Assembly (NCBI GenBank): GCA_021776825.1
Contig: JAJFFG010000040.1
Location: 1-61,188, forward strand
Source of the DNA: Planctomycetota bacterium
Lineage (GTDB): Bacteria > Planctomycetota > JAJSAM01 > JAJVHW01
Reading direction: 5' to 3'
DNA: 61,188 nt
Both the position numbers and the translations under genes were made by a program. The number at the start of each line of letters is the position of its first letter. The first letter of the stretch is position 1. Shown one piece after another: positions 36,512 through 54,812 of the stretch. The notes beneath the pieces were generated by a model, which made no database searches, had not been told where the DNA came from, and was given only the letters and a program-made list of their open reading frames with translations.

Positions 36512-37399
36512 ATGCCCGAGCTGCCAGACGTCGTCGTCTACGTCGAGCGTCTGAACGCGCTCGTCGCCGGCCAGACGCTCACGGGCATCCGCATGCACAG
36601 CCCGTCACTGGTCAAAACCTACGATCCGCCGCTGCGGTCACTGATCGGCCGCAAGGCGCTCGCGTTCACGCGGAGCGGCAAGCGCATCATCTGGGAGATG
36701 GAGGGCGATGACTTCGTCGTGCTCCACCTCATGATCGCGGGGCGCCTGCGGTGGCGGGAGAAGCTGACCAAGCTGACGCGCAAGCGCACACATGGCGCGT
36801 TCGACTTCGAGCGGGGCTCGCTGGTCCTGACCGAAGCGAGCAACCAGAAGCGCGCTGCGCTCCACGTCGTGCACGGAGCGGATGCACTCGTGAACTTCGA
36901 CCGTGGCGGGCTTGACGTCTTCGCGGCGAGCGACGCCGAGTTCGCCGAACGCATGCGCTCGGGGCGTCACACGCTGAAACGGTCGCTCACCGACCCACGG
37001 ATGTTCGACGGCATCGGCGGCGCGTACTCCGACGAGATCCTGCACCGGGCCCGGGTCTCGCCCGTGCAGCTCTCTACCAACCTCTCCGACGATGCCATGA
37101 CCACACTCCACGCCGCCTGCCGCGACGTCCTGACCGAGTGGACCGAGCGAACGCGCGAGGAGGTCGGCGACGGGTTCCCGGAAAAGGTCACCGCGTTCCG
37201 TCCGGGCATGGCGGTGCACGGCCGCTTCGGCAAGCCCTGCCCCGACTGCGGCACGGCTGTGCGTCGCATCGCGTACGCGACGCGCGAGACGAACTACTGC
37301 GCGCGCTGCCAAACGGACGGACGGCTGCTGCGCGATCGCGCGCTGTCCCAGCTCTTGAAGGCCGATTGGCCGCGCACCATCGACGAGCTCGAAGCGTGA
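36512..37399 (+). CDS. Formamidopyrimidine-DNA glycosylase family (Fpg/Nei) protein
   Basis: A 295-residue base-excision repair enzyme. It has the catalytic N-terminus MPELPD (Pro2 nucleophile, Glu3), the H2TH region (LTDPRMFDGIGGAYSDEIL) and a C-terminal zinc finger (CPDCGTAVRRI ... NYCARCQTDGRLLRD). Asp in place of the usual Glu at position 6 (PELPD) and the finger style place it among Nei-like members. The stop overlaps the next start (GTGA). Confidence 0.9.
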   Translation: MPELPDVVVYVERLNALVAGQTLTGIRMHSPSLVKTYDPPLRSLIGRKALAFTRSGKRIIWEMEGDDFVVLHLMIAGRLRWREKLTKLTRKRTHGAFDFERGSLVLTEASNQKRAALHVVHGADALVNFDRGGLDVFAASDAEFAERMRSGRHTLKRSLTDPRMFDGIGGAYSDEILHRARVSPVQLSTNLSDDAMTTLHAACRDVLTEWTERTREEVGDGFPEKVTAFRPGMAVHGRFGKPCPDCGTAVRRIAYATRETNYCARCQTDGRLLRDRALSQLLKADWPRTIDELEA

Positions 37400-43979: not shown

Positions 43980-46469
43980 ATGCTGATGTCCTCGTATGCC
44001 CGCGTCGGTCGCTCTGCCCCGACATTCGACCTGCCATCCACGCGGCAAGGCGAGCGCGGGAGAGTCACCAACGCCGACTTCGCCGGTCGGTGGCTGTTGC
44101 TCATGTTCTACCCGCGGGACTTCTCGCTGGTCTGCCCGACGGAGATCGGTTCTCTCGCCGCGCGAATCGACGAGTTCGCGTCGCAGGAGTGCGAGATCGT
44201 CGCGGTGAGTGTCGACGACCTCGACACGCACGAGCGCTGGATGGCGACACCGCAGAACGAAGGTGGCGTCGGCACACTGCCGTTCTCGCTGGCGTCGGAT
44301 CCTCACGGTAAGACCGCGGAGCGCTTCGGCGCATACCTCGCCGATTCCGCCGTCGCGCTGCGTGCCATGTTTCTGATCGATCCGGACGGCGTGATCCAGT
44401 TCGCCCAGAGCCAGGGACTCGCCGTCGGTCGCGGCTCGGACGAGACGCTTCGTGTGCTCGCCGCTCTGCGTGCCGGCGGTCTCTGCGCCGTCAACGCGAA
44501 GGGAGGAGCGCTGCAGATCGACCCGGAACGCGCGCTCCGTCCCGGCTCGGTGATCTCGCGCTACAAGATCAAGAGCCGCGTGGGCGTCGGCGCGTTCGGT
44601 TCGGTTCTGCGCGCCGAAGACACGAAGCTCGGTCGAGAGGTCGCGCTGAAGGTTCTGCGCCACGCGAGCACGGATGCCGTGCGCGACATGCTCGTCGAGG
44701 CCCGGACCGCCGCCTCGATCGGGCACGAAAACATCGCCACCGTCTATGACGTGGAAGACCGCGAGGGTGTGCCCCTGATCGCGATGGAGTATCTGTCAGG
44801 CGGCAACCTGGAGACCGTTGCCGACGGAGCGGCGGCCTCGCCGGAGGACATCCTGCGCTACGCGGCAGACGTCGCGGCCGGACTTGCCGCCGCGCACGCG
44901 CGGGGTCTCGTCCACGGCGACATCAAGCCGTCGAACGTGATGCTGACCGACGAGGGGCGGGCCAAGATCGTCGACTTCGGGCTGGCGGTGCACGCCAGCG
45001 CCTTGTTGACGGAGGCCGTCGGGGACTCGGCCGACGGCATCGTGAGCGCCGGGCTGCCGGCGGCCTGCGTCCCGGAGCGACTGACGGCCGAACTCGACCT
45101 GGAGCGGTCGACGGCTGCGATCGAGAGCGTTGTCGGCAGCCTGCGCGGAAGTCCGCGGTACCTGGCTCCGGAGCGCTGGCAGGGACAGCCACCGTCGGCG
45201 GCGTCGGACGTCTGGGCACTCGGTCTGATGCTCGCAGAGCTCGCCACGGGGCGTCCGTTGATCGACTGCAGTTCCGTCGCCGCGCTCATCCCCTCCATCA
45301 TCTGCCTCGATGGCGCCGCGATCGGCGCAGCGCTGCCCAGCGCCCTCGAGGGTGTCATCGAAGGCTGTCTTCGCCAGGACCCGGCTGCGCGCACGGATGC
45401 CGCGACGCTCGCGCACGAGCTCACCGGCGCGTCGGGAGTGTCCCGGAGAGGGACCGGCAGCAGAGGCGAACCGTCCGTCGCGGCATCGTCCGGTCTCTAT
45501 CTCTCGCAAGCCGAGGAGCACTGGCTCGCCCCCGAGACGCTCGACGACGATCCCAGGCTGGGGGGTGCGCAGCGCGAGATGTTCCTGGGCGAGGAGCGCC
45601 CAGTCGTCGGCGGTGTCGTCCTGCTGCGCCGCCTGGGCGAGGGTGGCATGGGTGTGGTGTTCTACGGAGTGAACCCGCGACTGGGCCACGAGGTGGCCGT
45701 GAAGCTCCTGCCGCAGCGCGGCACCGCCGACGAGTCCCTTGCCGCGCGGTTCCTCCGCGAGGCGCGCTGCGCCGCCCGCGTGCGGAGCCCGCACATCGTC
45801 GCCGCCATCGACGTCGGGTACGACGAGAGCAGCGGCTGCCGCTACATCGTGATGGACTACGTTGCCGGGGTCACCGCGCACGACTGGGCACGCTCTGTGC
45901 GCGCGGGCGGCGCTGAACCCGACGAGCAGTCATCGCTCATCGTGGGGAGAGCGCTCGCAACCGGCTTGGCGGCGGCGCACGAAGCGGGGATCGTCCACCG
46001 GGATGTGAAGCCGGCCAACCTGCTCATTCCGGTCGTCGACCAGATACCGCGCATCGAAGCCGCCAGGCTCGCCGACATGGGACTCGCGCGGGCCGTCGAG
46101 GACCTGGCTCACCTCACCGGCACGTTGGACTGCCTCGGGACGCCCGGCTACATGGCTCCCGAGCAGATCGGGAGAGCCCGGGAGGCCACGCCCGCGGCCG
46201 ATGTGTTCGGGTGGGGGGCCACGCTGCACTCCGTGCTCACCGGGCGGCCTCCGTTCTCCGGGAAGGGCGCCGCCGACCTGATCGGTCGGACGCTCGCGAA
46301 TCGTCGCACCCCGCTCGCAAAGCTGCGTCCCGATCTCTCCGAGGCCGCGTGCTCGCTAATCGAGCGCTCACTCCACCCGATCCCGGAGCGTCGTCCGGCC
46401 CACGGCGCCGCCCTGCTCGCCGAGCTCGCGCGGTTCAGGTTGCCCGAAGCTCCGAACAGCCCCGCCTAG
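43980..46469 (+). CDS. Peroxiredoxin fused to two tandem Ser/Thr protein kinase domains
   Basis: An 829-residue soluble protein. Residues 7-175 are a Prx1/AhpC-type 2-Cys peroxiredoxin: peroxidatic Cys52 in FYPRDFSLVCPTEI and a candidate resolving Cys169 in GGLCAVNAKGG. Kinase 1 (195-485) has Gly loop GVGAFGSV, Lys224, HGDIKPSN (Asp314) and DFG (332). Kinase 2 (545-820) has GEGGMGVV, Lys575, HRDVKPAN (Asp675), DMG in place of DFG (699) and GTPGYMAPE. Both appear able to bind ATP. It is likely a peroxide-responsive signalling kinase. Starts at 43986 (ATG) or 43968 (GTG) are possible. No membrane segment is seen. Confidence 0.9.
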   Translation: MLMSSYARVGRSAPTFDLPSTRQGERGRVTNADFAGRWLLLMFYPRDFSLVCPTEIGSLAARIDEFASQECEIVAVSVDDLDTHERWMATPQNEGGVGTLPFSLASDPHGKTAERFGAYLADSAVALRAMFLIDPDGVIQFAQSQGLAVGRGSDETLRVLAALRAGGLCAVNAKGGALQIDPERALRPGSVISRYKIKSRVGVGAFGSVLRAEDTKLGREVALKVLRHASTDAVRDMLVEARTAASIGHENIATVYDVEDREGVPLIAMEYLSGGNLETVADGAAASPEDILRYAADVAAGLAAAHARGLVHGDIKPSNVMLTDEGRAKIVDFGLAVHASALLTEAVGDSADGIVSAGLPAACVPERLTAELDLERSTAAIESVVGSLRGSPRYLAPERWQGQPPSAASDVWALGLMLAELATGRPLIDCSSVAALIPSIICLDGAAIGAALPSALEGVIEGCLRQDPAARTDAATLAHELTGASGVSRRGTGSRGEPSVAASSGLYLSQAEEHWLAPETLDDDPRLGGAQREMFLGEERPVVGGVVLLRRLGEGGMGVVFYGVNPRLGHEVAVKLLPQRGTADESLAARFLREARCAARVRSPHIVAAIDVGYDESSGCRYIVMDYVAGVTAHDWARSVRAGGAEPDEQSSLIVGRALATGLAAAHEAGIVHRDVKPANLLIPVVDQIPRIEAARLADMGLARAVEDLAHLTGTLDCLGTPGYMAPEQIGRAREATPAADVFGWGATLHSVLTGRPPFSGKGAADLIGRTLANRRTPLAKLRPDLSEAACSLIERSLHPIPERRPAHGAALLAELARFRLPEAPNSPA

Positions 46470-48652: not shown

Positions 48653-49054
48653 CTACGTGACGGCGGCTGCGCCGGCCTCGGCAACGGTGTGGTCATTCTC
48701 AACCGAGCTGCCCGACACCCCGATCGCTCCGATGACGGTGTCGCCGCTCCGGATCGGAATGCCGCCCGGGAAGGTGATCAGACCGCCGTTGGAGTGCTCG
48801 ATGTTGAAGAGCGGGCCGCCCGGCTGCGAGAGGCCGCCGATGTCGCCCGTGTTCATGTCGAAGTAGCGCGCCGTGCGGGCCTTCTTCATGGCGATATCGA
48901 TCGACCCGAGCCAAGCACCATCCATGCGAACGAACGCCTTGAGATTGCCACCGGCGTCGACCACCGCGATGTCCATTTTGGTGTCGATCTCGGCACTCTT
49001 CTCCAGTGCGGCTGCAACGGCCGCCTTGGCCTGGCTGAGGGTGATATCGCTCAT
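48653..49054 (-). CDS. GlcG/HbpS-type heme-binding protein
   Basis: A 133-residue protein ([20 protein letters not shown]). The family order is complete: [49 protein letters not shown]. HbpS-like proteins bind haem or sense oxidative stress; others of this family act near glycolate genes. AGGTGG-like box (GGAGACC) precedes the ATG at 49054. Stand-alone, with no oxidase gene nearby. Confidence 0.88.
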
Positions 49055-49384
49055 GGTGGTCTCCATCTGACGGGTCGTTTGGGGGGCCGGTTGGGGGGTG
49101 ACGGTGACGGCGCGTCCGGGCGCTGCTGCCACGACACGCGTTGGAGAGCGAGAGGCTATCGCGAGGGATGGAAGACGCGCGCAAGTCCCGGTCAGGACAG
49201 CCGGGGGCCGGACGAGCGCGCGACGCACGGACACCGCCGGATACCGAGATCGGTGAACGTCTCCCCGCGGTGATGACGTCCACCGGTCCCCGTACGCCGT
49301 AAGGGCCCGGACGGCTTCTGCCGGCGCGCCGGGAGCGGCGGTGCCCAGCGTGACGACCCCTACAGGTCGGGCATCAACCCCTCG
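49055..49384. other. Gene-free interval of 330 bp
   Basis: No coding character, repeat or clear promoter was seen. Confidence 0.5.
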
Positions 49385-52300
49385 CTACCGAACGATGCGC
49401 TTGACGCGAACGTCCCGGTCGCCCGCCATCACCCCGCCGGCGCGTCCGGCGAGGTCATGGCTGGCGTCGCCGGGCCCCTTCCAGCGCACGTCGAGTCGAT
49501 ACGGTCCGGCCTGGCTCGCCCGGACCAGGAGCAGGAAGCGTCCGTCCCTGTCCGTCACCGCGTTGGCGAACACGAGGCCCGAGCGCGCGGTGACGCGCGC
49601 TCCGGAGATCGGTGTGCCGTCGGTGTCGACGAACGTGCCGGTGATCTCCGCCGCCGCCTCGAGCTGCATCACGATCTCCTGGCCGTCCGGCACACCGCGC
49701 GCGGGCGACGGCGCCGCGTACCGATCGCTGATGCAGGCTCCGCCGCTCGCCCCCGACAGCCAGTACCCGAAAAAGTCGAGATCGACGCGTGGCAGTCCGG
49801 TGAAGTGCGCGCGCCCGGTCGCATCCGTCTCCTGCCTGACCCACCTCCTCCCCCCCGGCGGGTTCGTCATGATTTTCTCGTTCGCGAGGGGGGTCCCGTC
49901 CGGCGCGAGCAGCAGCACGGTGATCGTGCCGTCCATGACGGGCAGCGACATCTCGACGCGCACGTCGGTGGTGCCCGCGGTCACTCCACGCAGGCTGCCG
50001 CTCAGGGTGTCGGGCTCGTCTACGTCGCGATCCATGACCTGGGCGCGTAGCTCGGCGGTCACACCGCGCGGGACGGTGAGCGTGAAGCGACCGTCCGCCT
50101 TCGTGTAGCCCTCGCGGGGGAACGCGTAGCCGTCGGTCCAGTGCGCGCTGACCTGGACCTTCTCGACCGGCTGGCCATCGCGATCGACGGCGACGCCGGA
50201 GATCGTCTCGCCGCGCCGGAGGATCAGTTCCACGCCGGCCGATCCCCTCGCGGGATGGACGGGGTCCGCGCGGACGAACCGCTGAGATCGATCCACGTAC
50301 GGCGAGACGAGCACGACGGCGCCCGGCACGTCGGCGCGCGCGACTCCGTCGGCGTTCGTCGAGACGTTCTTACCCTGTGCGCCATCGAACTCGAGCGAGA
50401 GTCGCACGTCCGGGACGGGCATGCCGGACTCGTCGATCACTCGGACGGTGAACGTCCCCGCGGCGAGTTCGGGTGCGTACTGCAGGACGACCGGTCCCGA
50501 CTCGGCGCCCGCGACAATCTCAACGACGGCGCGGACCGCGCCGTACGTCTCGTCGGCGGCCGACACCACGTAGGTGCCCGGGCCGAGGTCCGAGAAGGCG
50601 AAGCGTCCGAGATCGTCGGTTGCGATCCTCGCGGAGTCGGCGTGATCGCCCGCGGCGGCGGGCACGGGCAGCTTCAGCGTGACGTCCCGACTCGGGAGCG
50701 GGAGGGCGTCTGGACCCAAGACCTGGCCGACGATCGCACGTGCCTGCGGAGGCCGCAGGACACCGAGATCGATCTCGCCCGGACCGGCCGCCCGCGGGCC
50801 GAACTCGGCGACGTACCGCCCGTGGCCGCGCGCGATGACGAAGAGAGCGTGCGGGAACTCGCGCGAGAGCCCCTCGATGCGGAAGGCACCGTCGGCGTCG
50901 GTGCGCGCAGAGCCGACGCTCAGCGCCTGTTGCTGTCTCGGACCGCGCGTCCCGATCGCGTGCACAAACGCCCCTACGACGGTCGCACCGTCCCGGTCGA
51001 CGACCGTGCCGACGATGACGTCGCCGCTCTGGAGCTCGATCCGGAGCTCCTGCCCCTCCGCGACGATCGCGCTGCCCCGAGCGTAGTCGGCATGCGTCGC
51101 ATGCACGTCGCGGACGGCGCCAGCTCCGGGGATCGTGAAGCGCCCCTCGTCATCGGACGTGACGGCGTGCTGCTGCACCCAGTGCCGCCCGACGACCGCG
51201 CCGACGACCGGCGCCGCCGTGACCGCGTCGACGATCACGCCCGAGATGTCGAACCCGCGCTCGAGAACGATGTCGATCCGTTCCTGCTCGCCGCTGGCGA
51301 CCGTCTGGGGTGGGGCGTCCACGAAGCCGTTCGCCGTCACGCGCAGCCACGCCTCGGAACCGGCCGGCAGGTGCGGGACGTGCAGATGACCGTCCGCGTC
51401 GGTCATCGCGTTCAGCTCGATCTGCGGGCCTGTCCGGCCACGCCGCCGCCCCCGAACGAGAGCGCCGGCGACCGGCGTGCCGTCGGCGTCGCGAACGTAC
51501 ACGTCGAGCGGCGCCGCGGGAGGCAGCACGATCCGCACGCGCGCCCCGGCCTGCACACGCGGCAGCAACACCTCCGCGCGGCCGTCGGCGGTCACGCGCA
51601 GGTCGACGGTCTCGCCCCGCGCGAGACGCAGAGCGAAGCGCCCTCCGGCATCCGCGATCGTCGCCGGACCCGCGACCTCCAGCTCGTAGAACGCCAGATC
51701 GAGCAGGTCCCACTGCCAGCCGGGTCGCGTCACGGCTGCGACGGACGCGCCGGCCACCGGGGCGCCGTTCTCGTCCACGACGAGCCCGTGAAGATCGAGC
51801 TGGCGGTCGATCTCGGAGAAGTCGACACGCGCTCCGACCTCGACGCCCGGAGGAGGCTCCGGGTCCGGGATCTGCTCGGCCCGCGCCGTGTGCACGCGGC
51901 CGCCACCGTCGCCGTCGCCATCCGCCACGGCGGCGCCCGGCCGAGGAGCCTTCCCACCGCCGGACGTCGCGAGCATCGTGCCGCCGACCACGAATCCGAG
52001 CAGCGCCACCGCCGCCACTATGAGCTTCTTCAGACCGGTCATGACGAGCACTCCTCCCCAGCCCGCGGCGACCGCGGTCTCCAGTCCGGGCGACGTTCGC
52101 TCGAGCGCCGGTCCCGCGAGCAGCAGCAGGGCCGCGCGGCCTCCGCGTCGCTCCTCGAGCTTCGTGCGCAGCATGGCGAACGCGCGCCGCTGCCGCGTCT
52201 TCACGGCCTCCTCGGAGACCCCCTGGCGCTCGGCCGTCTCGGCACCCGTCAGGCCCTCGAAGAAGCGCAGGAGAACGGTCTCGCGGTACGGCTCGTCCAG

Positions 52301-52636
52301 CGCGAGCACGGCCTCGACGGTGCGCTGACGCACCTCCCACTCCGCGGCGAGATCATCCGGCGACCGCGGTCCGCGAGCGGGAGGCGTGGCGTCCTCGTGC
52401 GCGCGCCGTCGCGTCGATCCGCGCAGCCGATTGAGACCGAGGTTGCGCACGACACGGGCAAGCCACGATCGGGCGGCGGCCGGCTCGAGCGGCGGTCGCG
52501 TCATCGCGATGACCGCCGCGTCCTGCACCACGTCCTCCGCGATCTCGGGATCGACGACGATCCGGCGCGCGAGCGCCACGAGCCATGCGCGGTCGCGCAG
52601 GAGTCGGTCGAGAGTGGGATGCGTCACGTCGTGCAC
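49385..52636 (-). CDS. Sigma-70 family (ECF-like) factor with membrane helix and large carboxypeptidase-regulatory-like part
   Basis: A 1083-residue protein. Region 2 (about 15-75, DPEIAEDVVQDAAVIAM) and region 4 (112-160, LDEPYRETVLLRFFEGLTGAETAERQGVSEEAVKTRQRR, seen as a helix-turn-helix) make an ECF-type sigma factor. A membrane helix (204-224, IVAAVALLGFVVGG) follows, then about 850 residues of repeated beta-sandwich domains (LHGLVVDENGAPVAGASVAA; PLDVYVRDADGTPVAGALV). The sigma part would stay in the cytoplasm and the rest outside. The GTG at 52636 is chosen; a GTG at 52627 also fits. No anti-sigma gene is adjacent. Confidence 0.85.
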   Translation of the reverse strand: MHDVTHPTLDRLLRDRAWLVALARRIVVDPEIAEDVVQDAAVIAMTRPPLEPAAARSWLARVVRNLGLNRLRGSTRRRAHEDATPPARGPRSPDDLAAEWEVRQRTVEAVLALDEPYRETVLLRFFEGLTGAETAERQGVSEEAVKTRQRRAFAMLRTKLEERRGGRAALLLLAGPALERTSPGLETAVAAGWGGVLVMTGLKKLIVAAVALLGFVVGGTMLATSGGGKAPRPGAAVADGDGDGGGRVHTARAEQIPDPEPPPGVEVGARVDFSEIDRQLDLHGLVVDENGAPVAGASVAAVTRPGWQWDLLDLAFYELEVAGPATIADAGGRFALRLARGETVDLRVTADGRAEVLLPRVQAGARVRIVLPPAAPLDVYVRDADGTPVAGALVRGRRRGRTGPQIELNAMTDADGHLHVPHLPAGSEAWLRVTANGFVDAPPQTVASGEQERIDIVLERGFDISGVIVDAVTAAPVVGAVVGRHWVQQHAVTSDDEGRFTIPGAGAVRDVHATHADYARGSAIVAEGQELRIELQSGDVIVGTVVDRDGATVVGAFVHAIGTRGPRQQQALSVGSARTDADGAFRIEGLSREFPHALFVIARGHGRYVAEFGPRAAGPGEIDLGVLRPPQARAIVGQVLGPDALPLPSRDVTLKLPVPAAAGDHADSARIATDDLGRFAFSDLGPGTYVVSAADETYGAVRAVVEIVAGAESGPVVLQYAPELAAGTFTVRVIDESGMPVPDVRLSLEFDGAQGKNVSTNADGVARADVPGAVVLVSPYVDRSQRFVRADPVHPARGSAGVELILRRGETISGVAVDRDGQPVEKVQVSAHWTDGYAFPREGYTKADGRFTLTVPRGVTAELRAQVMDRDVDEPDTLSGSLRGVTAGTTDVRVEMSLPVMDGTITVLLLAPDGTPLANEKIMTNPPGGRRWVRQETDATGRAHFTGLPRVDLDFFGYWLSGASGGACISDRYAAPSPARGVPDGQEIVMQLEAAAEITGTFVDTDGTPISGARVTARSGLVFANAVTDRDGRFLLLVRASQAGPYRLDVRWKGPGDASHDLAGRAGGVMAGDRDVRVKRIVR

Positions 52637-52741: not shown

Positions 52742-54472
52742 TCAGTCCAGCGGGCGCATGTCGACGAGCGTCAGGCCGCCGGGTCCGAGGTCGAGTTCAG
52801 CCTGGCCCGGAGCAGTGGAGCCGCGGCCGCCGCGCGGAGTCAGGATGCGGCGGCGGCTCGCGGAGGCGGCGTCCTTCGGGCGGGCGGTGACGTAGAGACC
52901 GAGGTTGTCCGCGACGCGGCGTACGAGCTTGAACTCCAGATCATCGCCCACCCGCGCGGCCTGCGTCTTGCCGTCCGGGCCGACGACCTGTGACGGCGAC
53001 GCGCGGACCTGGGCCGGGACGTTCGAACCGTCGCTGTGCACGAGCAGGGCCACCTGGTGAGCCGGGACGGCGATGAGTTCAGCGCCGCCGGCGAGATCGG
53101 GAACGAGGCCACCGGTCGCGAGTCCGTGACCCGCGACGCGCAGGACAGCATGGGTCGTCGGCGGAAATCGAAACGTGACGTGTCCGTCGTCGTCCGTGCG
53201 CACCGCCGCACCGAAGCCGCGGTCCGCAATCCCGCGGAAGCTGTCGCCGGCGGCTTCGATCGCGATGTCCACTCCGGCCAGCGGCTCGCCGTCCACGCCG
53301 ACGAGGCGCAGGGTCATCTCGCGATCGAGTGCGGCAGGCGGCTCGGCCAGCCCGGCGCGCTCGGGCGACGACAGTGCCTCGATGAACGCGTGGAGTTGGT
53401 CTCGCTCCTCGGCGCTGAGTCCGAGCGGCGAGAGGGCCGGATCGAGACCGCGATGACGCGCCGCGCCACCGTCGTAATACGCGATGACATCGCGGAGCGT
53501 CGCGAACGAGCCGTCGTGCATGAACGGCGCGCGCTTGCCGACGTCTCGGAGTGACGGTGTCTTGAAGCGCATGGCGTTGCGCCGACGCTCCTTCGTGTTC
53601 GCGCCATGACGCCCGTGCCCGGTGTCGGCGTCGCGCATCGGGTTGCGTGACCCCTGCGCCTGCGCGGAGCGGTACGCCACCCCGGTGTTGTGGAAGAGTT
53701 CGTCGCGCAGCAGCGCCCGACCGTCGGCCGGCTCCGTCACATGACACGTAGAGCAGCCGGCCTTGCCATCGAAGAGCGCCATCCCGGCGCGAGCCTCCGC
53801 CGAGAGCGCCGTGGCGTCTCCGGCGAGATGTCGGTCGAACGCGTTGTCACCCGAGCGGATGGACGCGCCATGCGCCTCGAGCGCGGCGATGATGCGGTCG
53901 GTCGTCGCCTCCGCGTCGCCGAACGCCGCACGAAAGCCCGCGGCGTAGAGATCACCGAGCGCGACGCGCTGCGCCGCGGACGCAAACGCAGGGTCCGGGC
54001 TGACGATATTGTAGCGACTCGTCTCCGAGCCCAGGCGGCGCAACGCGTCCGCGTCGCCTCCCTCCATCACGTCGCGCAACGGGACGAGACGCGCCGAGAG
54101 CAGGTCGCGCTGATCCGCGAACTCCCCATCGGAGTGCAACGGCCCCGCGACGAGATCGGTCAGCGGCATGGTGCGTCGCGTCGCGTTCCCGAACTCGTCG
54201 AGGGATGGATGCGCAGGGTCGCTGAAGCCATGAGTGGGATCGTGGCACGACGCGCAGGAGGTCTCCCCCACCCGGCTCACGCGCGGGTCGAAGAAGAGCC
54301 GGCGACCGAGTTCCACGCGGGCCATCTGCAGGGGGTCGAGAACGGCGGGCTCGGTTCCCTCCGTGTCGGGCGCGCCCAGCGCGGAAGGCAGGGCGTCAGG
54401 CCACGTCGCAAGGCACACCACGAAGACCGCCGCGGCGGTTGCCGCAGCCGCGAAGTTCGCGCGCAGCGTCAT
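52742..54472 (-). CDS. Dihaem cytochrome c peroxidase (MauG/CcpA family) with extra C-terminal domain
   Basis: A 576-residue secreted protein starting MTLRANFAAAATAAAVFVVC. Two haem motifs, CASCHDPTHGFSDP (about 80) and CSTCHVTEP (about 245), and the segment FKTPSLRDVGKRAPFMHDGSF are typical of bacterial dihaem peroxidases. After about residue 395 a carboxypeptidase-regulatory-like domain follows (MTLRLVGVDGEPLAGVDIAI), probably for binding to the cell surface. The long open frame to 54610 lacks a signal, so ATG 54472 is chosen. Confidence 0.85.
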   Translation of the reverse strand: MTLRANFAAAATAAAVFVVCLATWPDALPSALGAPDTEGTEPAVLDPLQMARVELGRRLFFDPRVSRVGETSCASCHDPTHGFSDPAHPSLDEFGNATRRTMPLTDLVAGPLHSDGEFADQRDLLSARLVPLRDVMEGGDADALRRLGSETSRYNIVSPDPAFASAAQRVALGDLYAAGFRAAFGDAEATTDRIIAALEAHGASIRSGDNAFDRHLAGDATALSAEARAGMALFDGKAGCSTCHVTEPADGRALLRDELFHNTGVAYRSAQAQGSRNPMRDADTGHGRHGANTKERRRNAMRFKTPSLRDVGKRAPFMHDGSFATLRDVIAYYDGGAARHRGLDPALSPLGLSAEERDQLHAFIEALSSPERAGLAEPPAALDREMTLRLVGVDGEPLAGVDIAIEAAGDSFRGIADRGFGAAVRTDDDGHVTFRFPPTTHAVLRVAGHGLATGGLVPDLAGGAELIAVPAHQVALLVHSDGSNVPAQVRASPSQVVGPDGKTQAARVGDDLEFKLVRRVADNLGLYVTARPKDAASASRRRILTPRGGRGSTAPGQAELDLGPGGLTLVDMRPLD

Positions 54473-54812
54473 GTTCACGCCCTCGATCCGATCGTCGCCC
54501 CCAACCGGGATGCGGCCGGATGACCGCGATCCCGAGTAGACCACCGCGACCCGCAACGTCAACGGCCGAGAGGGGGCGGAAGAGCGTCCCGTCGCCCGTA
54601 AGCGGGACACGCTGGTCGGGGACGATCACGCCATGCTGCGCCAAGTTCGGTTCGGCGGGAGGATGCGGAGACCCGTGAACGTCTTCAGCCGGTGGTGCGA
54701 TTCACCGGTCTCGGTACTCCATGCACCGACTCCGTCGACAGGCGGATCGCGCTGGTTCCCGGGAGGACAGTGCACCGATTCCTGCCGCGGCGGCATCTTT
54801 GTCTTGGACACT
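54473..54812. other. Divergent promoter region of 340 bp
   Basis: Separates the dihaem peroxidase from the sigma-sensor fusion; promoters for both must lie here. No consensus was recognised. Confidence 0.5.

What the first reader, a model, noticed from the sequence alone, without database searches (positions are those of the whole stretch)
43980..46469. Peroxiredoxin fused to two tandem Ser/Thr kinases in one protein
The peroxiredoxin keeps its peroxidatic cysteine in the exact AhpC context (DFSLVCPTE) and a C-terminal second cysteine. Both kinases keep lysine and catalytic aspartate, although kinase 1 has HGD in place of HRD and kinase 2 has DMG in place of DFG. A thiol peroxidase joined to its own kinases would convert peroxide level directly into phosphorylation. 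In eukaryotes peroxiredoxins relay oxidation to kinases; one-polypeptide versions with two kinases are, to my knowledge, not described. The unequal kinase motifs suggest one regulates the other.
Basis: partly seen in the sequence, partly recalled or inferred. Interest (0 to 1): 0.92.

Follow-up and report, generated by a model that had tools for sequence, protein, structure and literature searches.

The report
Peroxide sensor fused to two kinases
One bacterial protein joins a peroxiredoxin (a peroxide-reducing type of enzyme) to two signalling kinases, and since all 202 family sequences compared, nearly all with one kinase, keep both redox cysteines and the core kinase residues, the peroxiredoxin likely acts as a built-in peroxide sensor that would switch the kinase.

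Summary
In detail: window 43980-46469 (+) is one intact 829-aa frame with AhpC-TSA and two Pkinase domains. An 815-aa protein on another contig has the same layout, 57% identical end to end, so a frameshift or assembly join is ruled out in practice.

The novelty moves. The real object is a conserved one-kinase peroxiredoxin-kinase family, already in databases under automatic names, found full-length in 11 of 392 genomes of the phylum. In 202 sequences the peroxidatic Cys, resolving Cys, catalytic Arg, kinase Lys, HGD Asp, Asn and DFG Asp are each kept 202/202, and resolving Cys to P-loop is 33 residues in 189/202. The two-kinase form (two proteins found) has gained a second kinase from another, RD-type kinase line. 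HGD and DMG are lineage marks, not evidence that one kinase regulates the other.

Best reading: a 2-Cys peroxiredoxin whose redox-mobile C-terminal tail runs straight into a non-RD kinase, so disulfide formation likely switches that kinase. Nothing here measures redox control; direction and targets are unknown. Ten paper searches listed no description of the family.

The parts
43980..46469 (+). Whole gene, 829 aa plus stop: peroxiredoxin - kinase 1 - kinase 2
   Evidence: Single open frame; Pfam; same layout in P0002
43980..44534 (+). Peroxiredoxin domain with its C-terminal tail (residues 1-185); Pfam AhpC-TSA 9-141 = 44004-44402
   Evidence: aligned to Prx4 over residues 5-184
44133..44135 (+). 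Peroxidatic Cys52 (FYPRDFSLVCPTE)
   Evidence: 202 of 202
44262..44273 (+). GGVG (residues 95-98), the place of the GGLG motif of hyperoxidation-sensitive peroxiredoxins
   Evidence: GGLG 127, GGIG 11, GGVG 10 of 202
44361..44363 (+). Catalytic Arg128
   Evidence: 202 of 202
44484..44486 (+). Resolving Cys169 (GGLC)
   Evidence: 202 of 202; in register with Prx4/Prx2
44487..44582 (+). Joint between resolving Cys and P-loop (residues 170-201)
   Evidence: Cys to P-loop Gly 33 residues in 189 of 202, four lengths in all; pLDDT under 50 at 175-177
44556..45419 (+). Kinase 1 (about residues 193-480); K224, HGD 312-314 (non-RD), DFG 332-334
44973..45173 (+). Kinase 1 activation segment (332-398), 66 residues from Asp332 to Glu398; family mode 37
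   Evidence: 38 different lengths in 202 rows; largely pLDDT under 50
45447..45524 (+). Low-confidence linker between the kinases (residues 490-515)
   Evidence: pLDDT under 50
45525..45620 (+). N-terminal extension of kinase 2 (about residues 516-547), resembling that of stand-alone kinases
   Evidence: Matches from 511-526 onward in other genomes; read by eye
45621..46403 (+). Kinase 2 (Pfam 548-808); VAVK 572-575, HRD 673-675, DMG 699-701
   Evidence: groups with stand-alone kinases

Best explanation
The protein carries a complete typical 2-Cys peroxiredoxin, a non-RD Ser/Thr kinase directly behind it and a second, RD-type kinase, and it likely works as a one-chain peroxide switch in which oxidation of the peroxiredoxin would change the activity of the adjoining kinase. 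Inferred steps: peroxide would oxidise Cys52; the sulfenic acid would form a disulfide with Cys169 of the partner chain in the usual peroxiredoxin dimer; this would unfold the C-terminal tail, which in this family runs straight into the first strand of kinase 1, so kinase 1 would be repositioned and switched, more probably on; thioredoxin-type reduction would reset it. Because kinase 1 lacks the Arg of HRD, it likely does not depend on activation-loop phosphorylation, which leaves control to the peroxiredoxin. In the two-kinase form, kinase 2 would be activated by phosphorylation within the dimer and act as an added output. Shown: architecture, residues, spacing, family, and the separate lineage of kinase 2. 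Not shown: peroxidase activity, kinase activity, redox coupling, its direction, targets.
For: In 202 sequences P45, C52, R128, C169, K224, H312, G313, D314, N319, D332 are each 202 of 202, as expected if peroxidase and kinase are both used. Resolving Cys to P-loop is 33 residues in 189 of 202 (four lengths), against 38 lengths for the activation segment. The tail matches Prx4 past the resolving Cys, and the kinase starts where a free C-terminal helix follows in those enzymes (the helix itself from general knowledge and PMC8300647). Low model confidence sits exactly at this tail: 175-177 here, 167-172 around Cys168 in P0037. The gene is kept beside many other AhpC-TSA genes, 21-31 matches in each of 11 genomes, so bulk peroxide removal is unlikely to be its only use. 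Precedents: Tsa1 represses PKA by redox modification (PMC7392609, abstract); PknG and SpkB kinases respond to redox state through N-terminal Cys-containing parts.
Against: No assay exists. pTM 0.49 and 0.67: domain orientation is not determined, and only monomers could be modelled. A constant link may reflect packing rather than signalling, and its low pLDDT could mean a plain flexible tether. The window protein has Ala173 where 200 of 202 have Trp, and GGVG instead of GGLG. No neighbouring gene family is shared by more than 3 of 22 loci, so there is no hint of a target. Conservation was counted on top-ranked hits, and searched with patterns containing HGD and the approach to Cys52.
Confidence: 0.55

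Rival explanations
1. Assembly module: the peroxiredoxin dimer or ring simply holds kinases side by side for trans-phosphorylation; its redox chemistry matters little for signalling.
For: Typical 2-Cys peroxiredoxins form dimers and rings (general knowledge); the domain matches that class.
Against: A pure scaffold need not keep C52, R128 and C169 in 202 of 202.
Confidence: 0.2
2. Reverse flow: the kinase phosphorylates its own peroxiredoxin and so turns a local peroxidase up or down in answer to another signal.
For: Phosphorylation of animal peroxiredoxins is known (recalled, no call). Kinase and peroxidase in one chain make it easy.
Against: No separate sensor domain was found on the protein by Pfam; cytosolic kinase 1 would lack an input.
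Confidence: 0.12
3. Local scavenger: the peroxiredoxin protects the kinase or its client from oxidation, without regulating it.
For: Catalytic residues are complete.
Against: The fixed 33-residue link is not needed for mere protection; many other peroxiredoxin-like genes exist in these genomes.
Confidence: 0.08
4. Artefact: separate genes joined by an assembly error or frameshift.
For: The genome is a draft in 133 contigs.
Against: P0002 has both junctions on another contig at 57% identity; the peroxiredoxin-kinase 1 joint is in 202 sequences.
Confidence: 0.01

Closest known systems
One-kinase AhpC-TSA/Pkinase proteins of Planctomycetota (e.g. P0037, 'Serine/threonine-protein kinase PknL' of Aquisphaera giovannonii; loci in Tautonia, Blastopirellula marina, Rhodopirellula)
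   Same: Peroxiredoxin plus kinase 1 align end to end; same catalytic residues, same link length
   Different: They lack kinase 2; P0001 and P0002 form a fully supported pair on a long branch
Prx1/2/4-type typical 2-Cys peroxiredoxins
   Same: Active site, resolving Cys and GGxG loop; 33-40% identity in the structural matches
   Different: Kinase in place of the free C-terminal tail; YF helix absent at that place
Mycobacterial PknG (rubredoxin domain before the kinase) and Synechocystis SpkB (Cys-rich N-terminus)
   Same: Bacterial Ser/Thr kinases with a redox-sensitive N-terminal part (passages of PMC6069109 and PMC10651672)
   Different: No rubredoxin or TPR match here; the sensor here is an enzyme fold with its own peroxide chemistry
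Yeast Tsa1-PKA relay
   Same: Peroxiredoxin controls a Ser/Thr kinase (PMC7392609, abstract)
   Different: Two separate proteins; acts by modifying kinase cysteines
Stand-alone planctomycete RD kinases L004-L009
   Same: Same clade as kinase 2 (SH-aLRT 98), similar N-terminal extension in the five read
   Different: No peroxiredoxin in the stretch printed; L004 and L005 carry a membrane-like segment after the kinase (by eye)

Membership tests
Typical 2-Cys peroxiredoxin (Prx1/AhpC subfamily) | PxxxS/TxxC active site with catalytic Arg | tested here: met
   P45, S49, C52, R128
Typical 2-Cys peroxiredoxin (Prx1/AhpC subfamily) | Resolving Cys near the C-terminus in register with Prx4/Prx2 | tested here: met
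   C169, 117 residues after C52; alignment; spacing
Typical 2-Cys peroxiredoxin (Prx1/AhpC subfamily) | NCBIfam equivalog cut-offs for AhpC or PrxU | tested here: not met
   102.7 against 272 (AhpC) and 119.3 against 270 (PrxU): related, not an AhpC or PrxU ortholog
Typical 2-Cys peroxiredoxin (Prx1/AhpC subfamily) | Peroxidase activity; disulfide-linked dimer or ring | not testable with these tools
   Needs protein
Hanks-type Ser/Thr kinase, kinase 1 | Lys, alpha-C Glu, HxD Asp, Asn, DFG Asp | tested here: met
   K224, E240, D314, N319, D332
Hanks-type Ser/Thr kinase, kinase 1 | RD type (HRD) | tested here: not met
   HGD in 202 of 202
Hanks-type Ser/Thr kinase, kinase 2 | Lys, Glu, HRD, Asn, DxG | tested here: met
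   VAVK 572-575, FLREAR 591-596, HRDVKPAN 673-680, DMG 699-701
PASTA kinase PknB/Stk1 | NCBIfam NF033483 cut-off and PASTA repeats | tested here: not met
   360.9 against 450; no PASTA domain
PknG-type redox kinase | Rubredoxin domain and TPR | tested here: not met
   Neither is among the Pfam matches
Planctomycete one-kinase peroxiredoxin-kinase family | Peroxiredoxin and kinase 1 matched end to end with constant link | tested here: met
   Profile positions 4-455 of 461, E 1.8e-163; link 33

The most novel reading that the evidence does not exclude
A self-contained peroxide-to-phosphorylation cascade in one bacterial chain: disulfide-driven unfolding of the peroxiredoxin tail drives a non-RD kinase, which in the two-kinase form activates the captured RD kinase beside it. 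This would be a phylum-level bacterial counterpart of the eukaryotic peroxiredoxin-kinase relay, built by gene fusion.
Probability: 0.25. Interest if true: 0.87.

Novelty: new variant of a known kind. Interest (0 to 1): 0.64.

Why it matters
How peroxiredoxins hand an oxidation signal to kinases is hard to study in eukaryotes because the partners meet only briefly (general knowledge). Here both are one chain with a constant link, so whether and how peroxiredoxin oxidation changes kinase activity becomes a simple in vitro test, with over a hundred natural variants at hand. If true, it gives bacteria a direct H2O2 input into Ser/Thr phosphorylation.

Tried and rejected
Rejected: assembly join or frameshift; kinase 1 as a pseudokinase (core residues kept); 'unequal motifs mean hierarchy'; operon partner as target: among 22 loci plus the window no neighbour family is shared by more than 3 loci, and some of the shared ones are between near-duplicate loci.

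Led nowhere: promoter/terminator scan (no promoter-like site, one terminator-like site on the other strand against 0.5 expected). The top Foldseek hit, the TYK2 pseudokinase-kinase pair, has rmsd 20.6 and TMq 0.27 and probably reflects only that two kinases are present. The models leave domain orientation open.

Literature: ten paper searches were answered. Searches found no paper; the others were judged by title and start of abstract in the listing, and several listings were shorter than the number of papers found (20 of 33, 12 of 24, 6 of 38). None listed a peroxiredoxin-kinase fusion. The 2024 planctomycete kinase survey PMC11032199 (abstract, passages and section 20 seen) has no 'redoxin' or 'AhpC' in its main text, but its supplementary list of 105 accessory domains was not seen and may contain the domain.

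Limits: the protein searches scored 7,996 candidates and listed 120 of 236 and 120 of 286. One search scored 4 candidates per genome, so a fusion could be missed. A1 used 30 of 120 listed proteins, A2 45 of 120, A4 144 of 175. Rows dropped before the 202 count: window copy L041 and near-duplicates L063, L067, L073; truncated L078 never entered. Some rows are probably the same gene met twice (L065 and P0124 are both Tautonia sociabilis), so 202 is not 202 independent genes. P0161 is labelled a deltaproteobacterial MAG and was not checked.

Full report
What is there. Window 43980-46469 (+) is one open frame of 829 aa. Pfam finds AhpC-TSA at 9-141 and Pkinase in three stretches, best 548-808. The most hydrophobic 19-residue stretch (mean 1.9, from 433) lies inside the kinase 1 fold, so the protein is probably soluble.

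It is not an artefact. In a collection of about 5.8 billion clustered proteins one other protein of this layout was found, P0002, 815 aa, 57% identical over the whole length. A profile of the two scores 1699 and 1674 bits on them and then drops to 474 bits for one-kinase proteins. Each search scored 7,996 candidates, so 'two' means two found.

The family behind it. The other 118 proteins listed are 455-540 aa long: peroxiredoxin plus one kinase. Candidates had to be at least about 0.55 of the query length, so stand-alone peroxiredoxins were excluded by design. A profile of 30 one-kinase proteins (A1) against 392 genomes of the phylum gives full-length matches (E 1.8e-163 or better) in 11 of 392, and then falls to 2.7e-77 for matches without the full peroxiredoxin part. 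Eight of the eleven lie in one family (f27), two in the window's family, one in f41; only the window's genome shows the longer, two-kinase frame. In the window's family 2 of 5 genomes hold a fusion. A scan of one genome for each of 84,980 species kept the best 80 of 504 loci; the 21 loci L061-L081 carry the peroxiredoxin part. Of these 20 are titled as planctomycetes (among them Tautonia sociabilis, Blastopirellula marina, Rhodopirellula solitaria) and one, L068, as an uncultured bacterium. Of 36 loci examined, 31 hold a complete fusion frame (one of them the window's own), one (L078) is cut by a contig end, two (L114, L121) hold a stand-alone peroxiredoxin and two (L042, L093) show none.

Conservation. 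In 202 sequences P45, C52, R128, C169, G202, K224, H312, G313, D314, N319, D332 and D410 are each present in 202; S49 is Ser in 197 and Thr in 5; E240 and E398 are each kept in 201. The lists favour strong matches, and searched with patterns containing HGD and the approach to Cys52; the profile search had no such pattern, and its eleven fusions also keep these motifs. The step from resolving Cys to P-loop is 33 residues in 189 of 202, with four lengths in all, while the activation segment has 38 lengths.

Anatomy of the joint. The PDB search aligns residues 5-184 to Prx4 with the resolving Cys in register and the match running past it. In those enzymes a C-terminal helix with the YF motif follows; PMC8300647 (passages) describes GGLG and YF as marks of hyperoxidation-sensitive, almost only eukaryotic enzymes. 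Here the family has GGLG in 127 of 202, GGIG in 11 and GGVG in 10, with other letters in the rest, and the kinase begins where the YF helix would be. AlphaFold gives mean pLDDT 81.1 for the window protein and 87.1 for P0037, with low confidence at 175-177 and, in P0037, at 167-172 around its resolving Cys168; pTM is 0.49 and 0.67, so domain orientation is not determined. The link is thus constant in length yet predicted mobile, as a peroxiredoxin redox tail would be.

The second kinase. Kinase 1 of the two-kinase proteins falls with fusion kinases (19 rows, SH-aLRT 97; 18 are fusion kinases and one, L050, is not). Kinase 2 falls in another set of 8 rows (98) with six kinases of other genomes. 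In that set all six show HRD and five show DLG; the sixth was not caught by the pattern. Upstream sequence was printed for five of the six (L004, L005, L006, L008, L009): each has a similar N-terminal extension and no peroxiredoxin in the stretch shown, and L004 and L005 have a membrane-like hydrophobic stretch after the kinase (by eye). So a kinase with its own N-terminal extension was added behind a peroxiredoxin-kinase; DMG is one step from DLG. The tree of peroxiredoxin plus kinase 1 (64 of 150 rows after thinning) pairs P0001 and P0002 at 100 on a long branch among one-kinase proteins, without resolving their sister.

Setting. The window's genome has 23 AhpC-TSA matches, and each of the 11 fusion genomes has 21-31. 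Eight of the 23 have an in-frame TGA; in the four read (L144, L145, L147, L149) it stands at the active-site Cys position, and a tRNA-Sec scores 68 bits against a cut-off of 47, a cut-off passed in 5 of 14 control genomes. These are probably selenoproteins, while the fusion keeps Cys. Other peroxiredoxin-like genes make a sensor role more likely but do not prove it. Nearby window genes include a formamidopyrimidine-DNA glycosylase, an HbpS-like protein and a CCP_MauG protein, but neighbours are not conserved between loci, so I draw nothing from them.

How it likely works: see the best explanation. The choice of 'on' rather than 'off' is a guess. That a non-RD kinase fits control by something other than loop phosphorylation is general kinase knowledge.

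Known versus new. Redox-sensing bacterial kinases are known (PknG, SpkB; passages), and peroxiredoxin control of a kinase is known in trans (Tsa1-PKA; abstract). A peroxiredoxin built into a kinase was not listed by any of the ten paper searches answered, although databases hold the sequences under automatic names and one survey's supplement was not seen. Hence a new variant of a known kind, with the one-kinase family as the real object and the window's protein as a rare elaboration.

Noticed in passing
L144, L145, L147, L149 (window's genome, contigs C1, C107, C30, C65): Redoxin genes with an in-frame TGA at the active-site Cys position, one of them AhpC-like (L145); the genome has a tRNA-Sec at 68 bits. 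Probably a selenoprotein-using organism with several seleno-peroxiredoxins (8 of 23 AhpC-TSA matches carry a TGA; four were read).
   Followed up: partly
44496-44498 (residue 173): The window protein has Ala where 200 of 202 relatives have Trp, four residues after the resolving Cys; its nearest relative P0002 keeps Trp. Unexplained.
   Followed up: no
44973-45173: Kinase 1 activation segment is long in the two-kinase proteins (66 and 55 residues, family mode 37) and very variable in the family (38 lengths).
   Followed up: partly
49388-52636 (-): A 1083-aa frame with an ECF-type sigma-70 start (regions 2 and 4) followed by several carboxypeptidase-regulatory-like repeats.
   Followed up: no
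36512-37399 (+), 48656-49234 (-), 52745-54610 (-): Fpg-type DNA glycosylase, HbpS-like and CCP_MauG genes lie within 10 kb of the fusion, all from oxidation- or haem-related families; possibly coincidence, since neighbours are not conserved in other fusion loci.
   Followed up: partly
P0161: A one-kinase fusion labelled Deltaproteobacteria (MAG); could be transfer or misbinning.
   Followed up: no
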